Notes under the pieces: model-generated | The model's input: the letters and a program-made list of their open reading frames with translations, nothing else | Told to the model about the DNA's origin: nothing | The model's database searches: none | In this document: piece by piece, positions 8,659-60,498 of the stretch | Numbering within the stretch: position 1 is the first letter of the stretch | Layout: every line of letters starts with the position of its first letter | Made by a program: the position numbers and the translations under genes | Assembly: GCA_905221615.1 (NCBI GenBank) | Contig: CAJNDT010005880.1 | Coordinates: forward strand, 978,501-1,042,500 | Length of the DNA: 64,000 bases | Origin: Symbiodinium sp. CCMP2592 | Lineage: Eukaryota; Sar; Dinophyceae; Suessiales; Symbiodiniaceae | Direction: 5' to 3'

Positions 8659-8730
8659 TTCTGGCTTCGTTAAGGGGTTCAGTTCAAGTTACCAAAATAA
8701 AGGGATTCAAGTTACCATAACAAAAGGATC
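8659..8730 (+). mobile_element. Fragment related to the intron element of the 45.8-kb gene
   Basis: From 8669 the sequence matches the left arm of the intron at 45919-46082 at about 27 of 32 positions (shared blocks GTTAAGG, GTTCA, AAGTTACCA). A second ATTCAAGTTACCATAAC block follows at about 8710. No clear right end is visible, so it is truncated. Confidence 0.5.
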
Positions 8731-9010
8731 TATAGTTTTTATCGAAAGTAGCAGGGTTTTCTGATTTTTGATATCTGTAATTATGTTCCTTACCCCTTAA
8801 ATCCTAAGCCCTAAAACCCCGAACCGATAACCCTAAATCGGGATCCAGAAATACGAACAAGAGCCCATCATTGGCGGCTAGGAGGCAGATCCGGCTTAGA
8901 GTTAGAGTTAAAACGGCGCCATGTGGGGGAGTTTTGGTCTCCTTGCGCATCCATTACCCCTGGTGTCCCCACCCGCTGCGCGCGGGCACACAGCATCTTC
9001 TGTTTAGGAT

Positions 9011-9144
9011 GTCCTTAAGGGGGGGTGGTCCAAGGGGGGTAGGTAACCTAGTAATCCCCATTATTCCCCAATACTCCCTAAGCTTCCCTAAGGTTCCCCA
9101 AAGCTCCCTAGTACCCTCCCCCCTTGAACCACCCCCCCTTAAGG
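9011..9144. mobile_element. TIR-V element
   Basis: TCCTTAAGGGGGGGTGGTCC pairs with GAACCACCCCCCCTTAAGGA, with AGGAT/ATCCT outside. The second copy is at 24920. Confidence 0.8.
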
Positions 9145-9254
9145 ATCCTATAATCTGTTGGAATCCAGGTGCTTTGCTGAGTAAGTCCAACTTAGGCGGT
9201 GTGTTGACAGTGACCTTCAAATGCATTGTTTACAAATCCCTAAACCCTAAGACG

Positions 9255-9326
9255 GTAGGGGTTCCTTATTACAGTTATAGCTTAATGGGCCCCAAAACCC
9301 TATTCTAATTATTAAGGCCCCTATAC
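9255..9326. mobile_element. Truncated TIR-H
   Basis: The right half GGGGTTCCTTATTACAG to ATTATTAAGGCCCCTATA is present; the left arm is absent. Confidence 0.55.
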
Positions 9327-30216: not shown

Positions 30217-30310
30217 TACCTGTAGCCGAAAAGACCTACCTTTTTAAGGAGCTTTATGCAGAAACCATAGGACTGAACCCTAAAAAGGTAGGTCTTTTCG
30301 GCTACAGGTA
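30217..30310. mobile_element. TIR-P element, near perfect
   Basis: TACCTGTAGCCGAAAAGACC pairs exactly with GGTCTTTTCGGCTACAGGTA. Confidence 0.9.
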
Positions 30311-34590: not shown

Positions 34591-35692
34591 ATGTCATTGA
34601 TCTTTGAGGTAAGCCTCATAAGTGGCAAGACAGTGTCGCTGCGGGCAGATGCAGACGACTCTGTGGAATCGCTACGGGTGCGAGCGCAGAAAGCCCTGGG
34701 AGTTGGGAAAGGGCGACTCTTGGACTCCACTGGAAGTATTCTTGATGGAGGAGCCCCGCTAAAGCAGGCTAGGCTACAGAACGCGGAGCCGAATGTGCAG
34801 CCGGAGCCACTAACGTTGCAGGTTGGAAGAGTCGGTATATCTGGCGGACGCATGGCCTGTGCTGCGATACTGGGGGATGGCTCCGTCGTAACTTGGGGCG
34901 GCTTCGGTGGTCGCAGCAGTGCTGTGCGAAATCAGCTGAAGAATGTGGAACAGATTCAAGCAGCTTGGTACACGTTTGCTGCGGTCCTGGGGGATGGCTC
35001 CGTGGTGACCTGGGGCCTACCTGTCGCCGGGTGACAGCAGTGGCGTGCGAGATCAGCTAAAGACTGTGCAGCAGATTCAGGCAACTTCTCGAGCTTTTGC
35101 CGCGATCCTGCAAGATGGCTCCGTCGTGACCTGGGGCTGCGCATACTTTGGTGGTGACAGCGGTGCGGTGCAACATCAGCTGAAGACTGTGCAGCAGATT
35201 CAAGCAACGCAGGGTGCTTTTGCTGCAATCCTGGCTGATGGCTCCGTCGTGACTTGGGGCGATGCTGCGGATGGTGGTGACAGTGGAGCAGTGCGAGATG
35301 AGGTGAAGAATGTGCAGCAGATTCAAGCAACTGGATCGGCCTTTGCTGCAATCCTGGCTGATGGCTCCGTCGTGACTTGGGGCGATGCTGCGGATGGTGG
35401 TGACTGCAGTGGAGTGCGAGATCAGCTGAGGAATGTGCTGCATGTTCAAGCAACCAGGAAGGCGTTTGCTGCGATCAGGGGCGACGGCTCTGTCGTGACC
35501 TGGGGCGATGCTGACTTCGGTGGTGACAGCGGGGCAGTGCGCGATGAGCTGAAGAATGTGCTGCAGATTCAAGCAACTGGATCGGCCTTTGCCGCAATCC
35601 TAGGGGAAGGCTCCGTCGTGACCTGGGGTTGTGCTCGCGAAGGTGGTAACAGTAGTACTGAGCGGGATCAGCTGCACAACGGCTACGAGTAG
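34591..35692 (+). pseudogene. UBL-RCC1 repeat gene, intronless, frame broken
   Basis: Encodes an N-terminal ubiquitin-like fold (about residues 3-75; FEVSLISGKTVSLRADADDS, then LRVRAQKALGVGKGRLLDS and EPLTLQV) followed by seven RCC1-type repeats of about 41 residues carrying AFAAIL-DGSVVTWG and QIQAT. ATG 34591 follows CTC and matches the paralogue's start at 45772. The frame opened at 34591 ends at TGA 35032-35034 because GGTGGTGAC of the repeat consensus is GGGTGAC here, a 2-nt deletion in repeat 2. The remaining five and a half repeats continue in the next frame to TAG at 35692. RCC1-type blades usually mediate protein binding; UBL domains contact the ubiquitin/proteasome system; the role here is inferred only from architecture. 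It lacks the intron found in the 45.8-kb copy. Could be a pseudogene or an assembly indel. Confidence 0.8.
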
Positions 35693-40487: not shown

Positions 40488-40691
40488 GGGTGGTTCTCAA
40501 AATTAGGGTCCCTTTTTGGGTCCTTAGTATAATACGGCACCTACTGTTGATGGACAAAATCCTGCAATACCCATTATAAGGAATATACCATAGTTCCCAT
40601 AGATTAGAGTCCTTAGAGTCATGCAGGATGTTGTCCATCAACAGTACTTTTTCGGGTACCCAAAAAGGGACCATAATTTTAACAACCACCC
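40488..40691. mobile_element. TIR-D element, TSD ATGT, hosting a TIR-C element
   Basis: GGGTGGTTCTCAAAATTAGG pairs with CATAATTTTAACAACCACCC. ATGT at 40484-40487 and 40692-40695. The C element at 40542-40646 lies in its middle. Confidence 0.9.
40542..40646. mobile_element. TIR-C element nested in TIR-D, TA TSD
   Basis: TA|CTGTTGATGGACAAAATCC pairs with GGATGTTGTCCATCAACAG|TA. Confidence 0.9.
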
Positions 40692-44870: not shown

Positions 44871-44929
44871 AGATATGAAACTCTGTCTTTCTATAAATAT
44901 TACGCATACATGCGCATACATACATACGT

Positions 44930-44931
<2 letters not shown>

Positions 44932-44980
<49 letters not shown>

Positions 44981-45035
44981 TACACATGTATTTATACATG
45001 GTATATGTATATACATATACATATATATGTGTATA

Positions 45036-45116
<81 letters not shown>

Positions 45117-45121
45117 GTATT

Positions 45122-45152
<31 letters not shown>

Positions 45153-45240
45153 GTATATGTATACTATGTATGTGTGTATGCATATATGTATAATATATAG
45201 AGCATATATATATATATATATTTATAGATACACACATGTA
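44932..45240. repeat. (CAGA)n followed by (TA)n/(GTATA)n microsatellite
   Basis: Twelve CAGA units, then about 230 bp of ATATATGTATATAT. The long Tyr/Ile frames here are artefacts. Confidence 0.95.
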
Positions 45241-45771: not shown

Positions 45772-47390
45772 ATGTCACGGACCTTTGAGGTGAGCCTCAT
45801 AAGCGGCAAGGCTGTTTCGCTGCAAACGCACGAGGACGAATCCGTGGAGTCACTGAGGGTGCGTGCACAGAGAGCCCTAGGAGTTGGCAAAGGTCGACTC
45901 TTGAACTCCGCCGGAAGCGTTCCTGGGTTCTTGTTAAGGAGTTCAATTTAAGTTACCATAATTATATTCACTATACATCCCTACTATGATTACTTAAGTT
46001 AAACTCCCTAACAAGAAGTATAGTAAAGATAATGGGTTCTTTATTATGGTAACTTAAATTAAATTCCTTAACGAGAACCCAGGTTCTTGATGGAAGAGCC
46101 CCGATAAAGAAGGCCAAGATGCAGGCTAGGGAGGCGCTAACATTGCAAGTTCGACGAGTCGAGATTCAAGCAACCGAGACGGCCTTTGCTGCGATCCTGG
46201 GGGATGGCAGCGTCATGACCTGGGGAAGTGCAGAGAATGGTGGTGACAGCAGTAGCGTTCGAGATCAGCTGAAGAGTGTGCAACAGATTCAAGCAAATGG
46301 TGAGGCTTTTGCTGCGATCCTGACTGATGGCTCCGTCGTGACCTGGGGCGATGCTGACGATGGTGGTGACAGCAGTGCTGTGCAGGATCAGCTGAAGAAT
46401 GTGCAGCAGATTCACGCAACTGGAAGGGCCTTTGCTGCGATCCTTGCTGATGGCTCCGTGGTGAGCTGGGGCAGGGCCCACGCCGGTGCGGACAGCAGTA
46501 ATGTGCGAGATCAGCTGAAGCATGTGCGGCATATTCAAACAACTTTCTTTGCCTTTGCTGCGATCCTTGGTGACGGCTCCGTCGTGAGCTGCGGCTGCCA
46601 TCCTATTGTCAACGGCCGTGGTGACATCACAGCTGGGCGAGATCAGCTGAAGAATGTGCAGCAGATTCAAGCAACTTCGGCAGCCTTTGCTGCGATCCTG
46701 CGGGATGGCTCGGTTGTGACCTGGGGAAGTGCTGACAGCGGTGGTGACTGCAGTGCTGTGCAAGATCAGCTGAAGAATGTGCAACAGATTCAAGCAACCC
46801 AGAACGCCTTTGCTGCGATCCTGGAAGGTGGCTTTGTCGTGACCTGGGGCGATGCTGAATTCGGTGGTGACAGCAGTACTGTGCGACATCAGCTGGAGAA
46901 TGTGCAGCAGATTCAAGCAGCTCGCTATGCCTTTGCTGCAATCATTGTTGATGGCTCCGTCGTGACCTGGGGCAGTTCTAACAGTGGTGGTGACAGCACT
47001 GCTGTGCAGGATTGTCTGAAAAATGTGCAGCAGGTTCAAGGGAATGATGAGGCCTTTGCTGCGATCCTTGCTGATGGTTCCGTCGTGACCTGGGGCTATG
47101 CCCGCTGCGGTGGTGACACCAGTGCTGTGCGAGATGGGTTGAAGAATGTGCAGCAGATTCAAGGAACTAAGGCAGCCTTTGCTGCGATCCTGCGGGATGG
47201 CTCGGTTGTGACCTGGGGCAGTGCTGACAGCGGTGGTGACTGCAGTGCTGTGCAAGATCAGCTGAAGAATGTGCAGCAGATTCAAGCAACCAGCCGGGCC
47301 TTTGCTGCGATCCTGGAAGATGGCTCTGTTGTGACCTGGGGCGATGCTGACGCAGGTGGCGACAACAGTGTTGTGCGAGATCAGGTGTAA
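45772..47390 (+). CDS. UBL-RCC1 repeat protein (484 aa, one intron 45919-46082)
   Basis: Exons are 45772-45918 (49 codons) and 46083-47390. The protein begins with a ubiquitin-like fold (residues about 3-73: FEVSLISGKAVSLQTHEDES, LRVRAQRALGVGKGRLLNS, VLDGRAPIKKAKMQ, ALTLQV), followed by ten RCC1-type repeats of about 41 residues (AFAAIL-DGSVVTWG, GGDSSAV-DQLKNVQQIQAT). Canonical RCC1 has seven longer blades, so this is a short-repeat relative. Repeat 4 is irregular (SCGCHPIVNGRGDI) and repeats 5 and 9 are nearly identical. Removing the 164-bp GT-AG intron restores frame exactly (phase 0), and the joined region aligns with the intronless paralogue at 34591. Function is inferred only: UBL domains dock to ubiquitin machinery and RCC1 blades bind proteins. 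A 436-codon antisense frame over it is a repeat shadow. Confidence 0.85.
45919..46082 (+). mobile_element. TIR element acting as a GT-AG intron (introner)
   Basis: CTGGGTTCTTGTTAAGG at 45923 is inverted at the right end as CCTTAACGAGAACCCAG (16 of 17 pairs). GTTC is duplicated at 45919-45922 and 46083-46086. GT comes from the left duplicate and AG from the element's last two bases, so excision removes element plus one duplicate and restores the frame. The left arm can also pair with an internal copy at about 45990-46017 (TACTTAAGTTAAACTCCCTA), giving three arms. Splicing is inferred from frame, termini and the empty paralogue. Confidence 0.85.
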
Positions 47391-50195: not shown

Positions 50196-50405
50196 TACTG
50201 TTGATGATATGGGTGGTTGTCAATATTAGGGTCCCTTTCTGGGTCCCTATTATGATACGGCACCTAATATTCAGGGTACCCCAAAAGGGACCATAATTTT
50301 GACAACCACCCATATGAACCCTGCATACCCCATAAGAATGAATATACCCTAATTCCCAACGTGTAGGGTCATAAAGGTAATGCAGGGTTCATATCATCAA
50401 CCGTA
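50196..50405. mobile_element. TIR-C element split by TIR-D
   Basis: TA|CTGTTGATGATAT at the left and GGTTCATATCATCAACCG|TA at the right are C termini. The D element sits 13 bp inside the left end. Confidence 0.9.
50211..50311. mobile_element. TIR-D element nested in TIR-C, TSD ATAT
   Basis: GGGTGGTTGTCAATATTAGG pairs with CATAATTTTGACAACCACCC. ATAT at 50207-50210 and 50312-50315. Confidence 0.95.
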
Positions 50406-60397: not shown

Positions 60398-60498
60398 TTA
60401 GAAGCTGCCCCCACCCTGTAATAGTGGTATAATAGGAATATAATAGGGCCCTAATATAATCCTTATAGTCACTATTACAGGGTTGGGGCAGCTTCTAT
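60398..60498. mobile_element. TIR-L element
   Basis: TTAGAAGCTGCCCCCACCC pairs with AGGGTTGGGGCAGCTTCTA. TGTATGC occurs just outside both ends. Confidence 0.85.

What the first reader, a model, noticed from the sequence alone, without database searches (positions are those of the whole stretch)
45919..46082. A TIR element is the intron of the UBL-RCC1 gene: a caught-in-the-act introner
Seen: 17-bp terminal inverted repeats (16/17), a 4-bp duplication (GTTC), and GT...AG ends made of the left duplicate and the element's last bases. Removing 164 bp restores the frame exactly. The paralogue at 34591 has no insertion at the homologous codons (AGT ATT CTT GAT against AGC GTT CTT GAT). Known: introners with TIRs and target duplications have been reported in several protists, dinoflagellates among them. 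Inference: this foldback family makes spliceable introns on insertion.
Basis: partly seen in the sequence, partly recalled or inferred. Interest (0 to 1): 0.92.

Follow-up and report, generated by a model that had tools for sequence, protein, structure and literature searches.

The report
A transposon-made intron, but old
A small folded-back transposon in a gene of a coral-alga-type dinoflagellate looks like a normally removed intron, a known way new introns arise, but it seems to be an old one, since at least five sister genes carry a related element at exactly the same spot.

Summary
Observation confirmed. 45923-46082 is a foldback element (TIR 16/17, running on to 37/40) with a GTTC duplication; only register 45919-46082 gives GT..AG, and removing 164 bp leaves a 484-aa open frame. 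The window is a contig of a 1.1-Gb Symbiodinium-like genome.

Introner reading: well supported by sequence; no RNA seen. The exact TIR end occurs 1435 times; 28 of 39 bounded copies have identical 4-bp flanks. A copy in an unrelated gene is crossed flush by 30 of 30 spanning homologues. In the mostly single-exon host family, 12 of 12 inserts with homology-set length have a duplication and a G[T/C/A]..AG register; three further inserts could not be tested that way and one of these failed.

"Caught in the act" is not supported: five more UBL-RCC1 genes carry family elements at the same nucleotide with the same GTTC, unlike the young 111-bp copies. The gene tree is patchy: one old gain with losses, or repeated gain at one site, is open.

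The kind is published: Gozashti et al. 2022, S. microadriaticum introners, same anatomy, example 115 bp.

The parts
45772..45918 (+). exon 1 of the host gene (49 codons, phase 0 at the intron)
45919..46082 (+). proposed intron GT..AG, 164 bp (left duplicate + element)
   Evidence: RNA fold -64.8 kcal/mol, z -11.66 against 200 shuffles
45919..45922 (.). left copy of target duplication GTTC, supplies the GT donor
46083..46086 (.). right copy of target duplication GTTC
45923..46082 (.). foldback element, 160 bp; 34 of 37 other bounded copies (L041 apart) are 111 bp
45923..45962 (+). left terminal inverted repeat (37/40)
46043..46082 (-). right terminal inverted repeat, ends in CCCAG = acceptor
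45985..46017 (-). third, inner arm, corresponding to the right arm of the shorter relatives; what follows resembles an inverted left part
46083..47390 (+). exon 2, RCC1 repeats, to the stop codon
34591..35692 (+). paralogue without insert at the site; frame broken near 35031
8661..8724 (+). degraded partial copy of the same family

Best explanation
The 164 bp are a spliceosomal intron made by insertion of a non-autonomous TIR element (MITE-like introner), and the insertion is not fresh. Insertion duplicated GTTC; the left duplicate gives the GT donor and the element's CCCAG end the acceptor, so splicing restores the pre-insertion codons. The confidence below is for this. How the site came to be shared is a separate, weaker inference: I favour one ancestral gain followed by losses in some duplicates (about 0.55) over repeated gain at one nucleotide (about 0.3). 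In this copy an inverted duplication of a left part probably replaced the old right end and so re-created the acceptor, because the left TIR read backwards is the same CCCAG end. Shown by sequence: anatomy, dispersed family, duplications, paralogues, open frames. Inferred: splicing, transposition by a transposase in trans, number of gains, losses, the rearrangement.
For: Only one register gives GT..AG and it restores a 484-aa frame. L041, a second gene 345 kb away, has a 113-bp element at the same site, the same GTTC, and a 479-aa open joined frame. L108-L111 carry an element at the site with GTTC on both sides; joined frames run on into the first RCC1 repeat in three of these four. 28 of 39 bounded family copies (the window gene and L041 among them) have identical 4-bp flanks against 0-1 of 39 at seven offset registers. 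L090, an unrelated gene: 125-bp family element, GTAT duplication, GT..AG, 149+147 open codons (all that was fetched); of 46 homologues listed 30 span the junction and 30 of 30 are flush at WRT^SIAHD. Insert test in the host family: 12 of 12 cases with homology-set length have a duplication of 4 nt or more and a G[T/C/A]..AG register, rough product of chances 10^-12.7. 70 of 71 protein alignments over the site show no extra residues. Window gene against L041: dS 0.48, dN/dS 0.47.
Against: No RNA evidence. Some genes with an element at this site look damaged: L108 leaves the frame about 25 codons after the junction and L110 shows no start codon in its open stretch. dN/dS 0.47 is weak constraint. 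For a single gain: the gene tree puts the window gene next to the intron-free L056 (97/93), L041 outside; only the 47-nt 3' half of the window element has L041 as best match (74 against 59), while its left part is closest to L003, its right part to L012, and the best relatives of the whole L041 element are young copies such as L005, not the window copy; the shared TTAAACTCC of the six site elements is also in the elements of L002 and L102. One insert, L053, gave no splice register at its longest duplication.
Confidence: 0.85

Rival explanations
1. Repeated gain (a variant of the best explanation, not exclusive of it): elements of this family inserted independently at the same nucleotide in several UBL-RCC1 genes, because the site with GTTC is a preferred target that also makes a working donor.
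For: Intron-bearing and intron-free genes are interleaved; the L108-L111 elements differ strongly inside from those of the window gene and L041; left and right parts of the window element have other copies than L041 as best match; L061, close in protein sequence to L109 and L110, has no insert.
Against: The 3' half of the window element is closest to L041 (74 against 59) and an element tree joins the two with bootstrap 82 (24 other copies used, L108-L111 not in it); all six share TTAAACTCC; hitting one nucleotide of a ~1.5-kb gene repeatedly is unlikely without a strong target rule, and the duplications seen elsewhere vary.
Confidence: 0.3
2. A plain MITE insertion that broke the gene; GT..AG is coincidence and the gene is a pseudogene.
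For: No transcript seen; broken family members are common (14 of 29 interrupted loci read have only a frameshift or stop); TSDs beginning with GT are not rare (10 of 78 strand sides GT..AG); L108 and L110 look damaged.
Against: Long frames stay open on both sides in this gene and in L041; 12 of 12 inserts with homology-set length are splice-configured; L090 lies in a conserved motif with 30 of 30 spanning homologues flush.
Confidence: 0.07
3. A very recent insertion.
For: Perfect duplication and 37/40 TIR; the nearest gene read, L056, is empty.
Against: Same site occupied in five more genes; element rearranged and unlike the young consensus, to which 13 of 34 111-bp copies are letter-identical.
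Confidence: 0.06

Closest known systems
Symbiodinium microadriaticum introner family 1 (Gozashti et al. 2022, PMC9860276; abstract, sections 7, 10, 23 and passages seen)
   Same: TIRs, 4-bp TSD, element carries the 3' splice site, 5' splice site taken from the TSD; their example spans 86725-86839 = 115 bp, equal to 4 + 111 here
   Different: their sequence is not held here, so letters were not compared; this copy is 164 bp and rearranged
Dinoflagellate introners incl. Polarella glacialis (Roy et al. 2023, not seen; told from passages of the review PMC11453091)
   Same: introner insertion as a source of recent introns in dinoflagellates, many families in one genome
   Different: original paper not held, no sequence compared
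Amoebophrya introner elements (Farhat et al. 2021, PMC7789003, passages seen)
   Same: inverted repeats near both intron ends (8-20 nt there) and 3-5 nt direct repeats at the boundaries
   Different: there defined among introns with non-canonical splice sites; here GT, GC or GA to AG

Membership tests
introner (TIR/TSD type) | introns that are copies of one dispersed element family | tested here: met
   1435 exact TIR ends; family elements in six UBL-RCC1 genes and in L090. L088 joins nucleoporin FG repeats (Pfam E 4.4e-5, under the curated cut-off) but with an imperfect duplication GTTC/GTTT
introner (TIR/TSD type) | terminal inverted repeats and target duplication | tested here: met
   TIR 37/40; 28 of 39 identical 4-bp flanks
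introner (TIR/TSD type) | splice sites formed by TSD and element end, coding length unchanged | tested here: met
introner (TIR/TSD type) | spliced from RNA | not testable with these tools
   no RNA data held
S. microadriaticum introner family 1 | sequence similarity to that family | not testable with these tools
   only anatomy and length (115 bp) could be compared
Amoebophrya-type introner element | non-canonical splice dinucleotides | tested here: not met
   GT..AG here; GT, GC or GA to AG in 12 of 12 inserts with homology-set length

The most novel reading that the evidence does not exclude
One nucleotide of the UBL-RCC1 gene has been turned into an intron by the same transposon family several times independently. 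A family of hundreds of mostly single-exon genes thus works as a natural trap that records intron birth (several element families, GT, GC and GA donors, one minisatellite insert) and shows parallel gain at a preferred site.
Probability: 0.28. Interest if true: 0.8.

Novelty: new member of a known kind. Interest (0 to 1): 0.55.

Why it matters
Introners are a published source of new introns. What this locus adds is a large family of similar, mostly single-exon genes in one genome, with inserts of several element families at different sites and empty paralogues to compare. That makes gain, loss, donor choice and reuse of one site countable in one genome, and it suggests that a TE-derived intron can rebuild its acceptor from its other TIR.

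Tried and rejected
Joined-frame scan of the 39 bounded copies: judged by the shorter side none passed the 99th percentile of 1994 controls (148 codons); by total length the two UBL-RCC1 genes (495 and 489 codons) and L006 (312) were longest among the 30 rows shown. L006 was not convincing on reading, so most of these young copies are not visibly in genes. L002 (177 bp, unclear ends) was dropped from the 40 scored places before the count of 39. The element pattern gave 0 hits in viral contigs and genome contigs (the window's own genome may be left out there). 50 kb beyond the window held no further paralogue. Pfam on ten window ORFs found nothing above a curated cut-off. The PSSM set removed lengths but not the register (its readings for the window gene, L041, L050 and L052, repeated, gave no duplication of more than 1 nt), so the longest duplication at the set length was taken. 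Its search windows were placed by eye, and for L050, L052 and L054 after the splice-aware, so the test is not fully blind. For L049 and L065 the PSSM preferred another length (105, 117) than the duplication (93, 105); the duplication length was used. L053 failed (a 3-bp reading GCA with GC..AG exists). These three are outside the 12. In one search one alignment (P0114) has extra residues, one (P0057) lacks the region, and P0046 counts twice. Of 29 interrupted loci read by eye (28 genes; not all short-frame rows were fetched), 13 hold inserts (14 inserts), 14 only a frameshift or stop, 2 (L069, L073) were undetermined (the output was cut). In one search the right ends were chosen by TIR match plus flank match, so its 8 of 20 identical flanks are partly selected. 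Of the 25 places two were known, six were read, 17 were not; of the six, L106 and L107 are not UBL genes and have no duplication.

Full report
What is there. The element at 45923-46082 is real. Its arms match 16 of the first 17 nt and 37 of the first 40; the best terminal repeat in 20 block shuffles of the window scored 13 against 32. GTTC stands on both sides. Of eight registers for a 164-bp removal only 45919-46082 gives GT..AG, followed by G. The joined frame runs 484 codons from 45772 to 47390; unspliced it meets stops inside the element. As RNA the piece folds at -64.8 kcal/mol, z -11.66.

Where it is. The window lies in a 1.1-Gb assembly of 5383 contigs. The five best protein relatives of the joined product are 56-69% identical; the named ones are Symbiodinium sp. 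KB8 and S. microadriaticum. I take it for a Symbiodiniaceae dinoflagellate; the species is not known to me.

The element family. A search with the 164 bp gave 829 candidates, 40 scored. I bounded 39 of these 40 places (L002 dropped); 28 have identical 4-bp flanks, against 0 or 1 of 39 at seven offset registers. They are the best matches, not a random draw. 34 are 111 bp long and 13 of these equal the consensus letter for letter, so the family moved recently. The exact 17-nt end CTGGGTTCTTGTTAAGG occurs 1435 times genome-wide, the reversed control 0 times; 126 such ends follow GTNN. So about 9% of exact ends are GT-ready.

Copies as introns in other genes. I took the first 20 GT-ready places of the list (leaving out one already held) with about 450 bp each side. 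Eight of 20 had a right end of at least 11/17 and an identical duplication, with the choice of end partly guided by the flank. L090 is the clearest: 125 bp, GTAT twice, frame open over all that was fetched (149 and 147 codons); of 46 homologues listed 30 span the junction and 30 of 30 are flush at WRT^SIAHD. Sixteen do not span; P0155 (97% identical) stops matching at the junction and ends in residues that resemble a read-through of such an element. L088 joins nucleoporin FG repeats (Pfam E 4.4e-5, under the curated cut-off; flanks GTTC/GTTT). The other joined frames are suggestive at most.

The host gene family as a test. The 78-residue N-terminus gave 945 first-look candidates, 150 scored. 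The 149 places other than the window gene match across the insertion site with spans too short for an insert; by eye about 115 of the 150 have open frames of 440 codons or more. Interrupted genes score less, so this list favours empty sites. I read 29 interrupted loci: 13 contain inserts (14 inserts), 14 only frameshifts or a stop, 2 undetermined. Removed length was set by protein homology, the longest duplication at that length was then found, and the splice dinucleotides were asked for last. With the window gene, 12 of 12 cases have a duplication of at least 4 nt and a G[T/C/A]..AG register: GT in four, GC in four, GA in four (one of these also allows GC). The product of chances, 10^-12.7, is rough: three inserts (L071, L072, L075b) share their ends, and search windows were placed by eye, three of them after a splice-aware look. 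L049 and L065 agree but their length was chosen by the duplication; L053 does not pass. L054 is different: a 230-bp minisatellite between 16-bp repeats, no TIR element. GC and GA donors fit: a review gives 25-74% GC or GA to AG in Symbiodiniaceae (PMC11453091, passages seen).

Age of this intron. A second gene, L041, 345 kb away on the contig, has a 113-bp element at the same nucleotide with the same GTTC and a 479-aa joined frame. A site-specific pattern search gave 25 places: the two known, six that I read, 17 that I did not. Of the six, four (L108-L111) are UBL-RCC1 genes with GTTC on both sides at the same nucleotide, two are not. So at least six genes carry an element at this site; L108 leaves its frame soon after the junction and L110 shows no start codon, so not all six look intact. 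Window gene and L041 differ by dS 0.48. The last ~68 nt of the window element match the left part of the L041 element inverted at 83%: an inverted duplication probably replaced the old right end and supplied the acceptor again.

Gain or loss. In an 18-sequence tree of 297 columns the window gene is sister to intron-free L056 (97/93); L065 and then L041 lie outside them (group of four 85/89). L108-L111 were found after that tree; by protein L109 and L110 resemble the intron-free L061. The elements give mixed signals: the 3' half of the window element is closest to L041 and a tree joins the two (82), but its left part is closest to L003, its right part to L012, and L041's own best relatives are young copies; TTAAACTCC is in all six site elements and otherwise, within an element, in L002 and L102 as far as I can place the hits. 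I lean to one old gain with losses, about 0.55, against repeated gain, about 0.3.

Known kind. Gozashti et al. 2022 (abstract, sections 7, 10, 23 and passages seen) describe S. microadriaticum introners with 4-bp TSDs and TIRs that carry the 3' and co-opt the 5' splice site; their example is 115 bp long, as TSD + 111 is here. The anatomy is therefore published; identity of the family is likely but was not tested by letters. In my five paper searches (listings, plus passages of four papers, and the paper above) I saw no report of this gene family as a record of intron gain; the library lacks most subscription journals.

Noticed in passing
window 34591-35692: The intron-free paralogue is frameshifted: frame 0 ends at 35031 and the RCC1 repeats go on in frame 1.
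   Followed up: partly
L071, L072, L075 (UBL-RCC1 genes): Three inserts share a second element family with similar ends (CTAGGTAGGnCTTTGG at the start) and duplications GTTG, GTAA, GCTGC; L075 holds two inserts.
   Followed up: partly
L053 and L085: Both inserts begin alike and end in CAGAAGTCAGCCAAG: a third repeated element family in the host genes.
   Followed up: no
L054: A 230-bp minisatellite of TTTAGGG-like units sits in the coding region between 16-bp direct repeats and reads GA..AG: a possible intron gained without a transposon.
   Followed up: no
window 30217-30310, 40488-40691, 50208-50314, 60400-60496: Other inverted-repeat elements with 3-5 bp flanking repeats of other sequence; 3-bp flanks can be chance.
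   Followed up: no
window 8661-8724: Degraded partial copy of the same foldback family; I did not look for a gene around it beyond ORF 8808-9305, which had no Pfam hit.
   Followed up: no
G000: The UBL-RCC1 family has up to 945 first-look candidates in one genome; the 150 scored are mostly open across the tested stretch.
   Followed up: partly
P0155: A public predicted protein 97% like L090's gene ends in residues that resemble a read-through of an introner, as if an intron had been taken for coding sequence.
   Followed up: partly
window 44920-45230: Long (GACA)n and (TA)n microsatellites upstream of the gene; a TA tract also precedes L041's gene.
   Followed up: no
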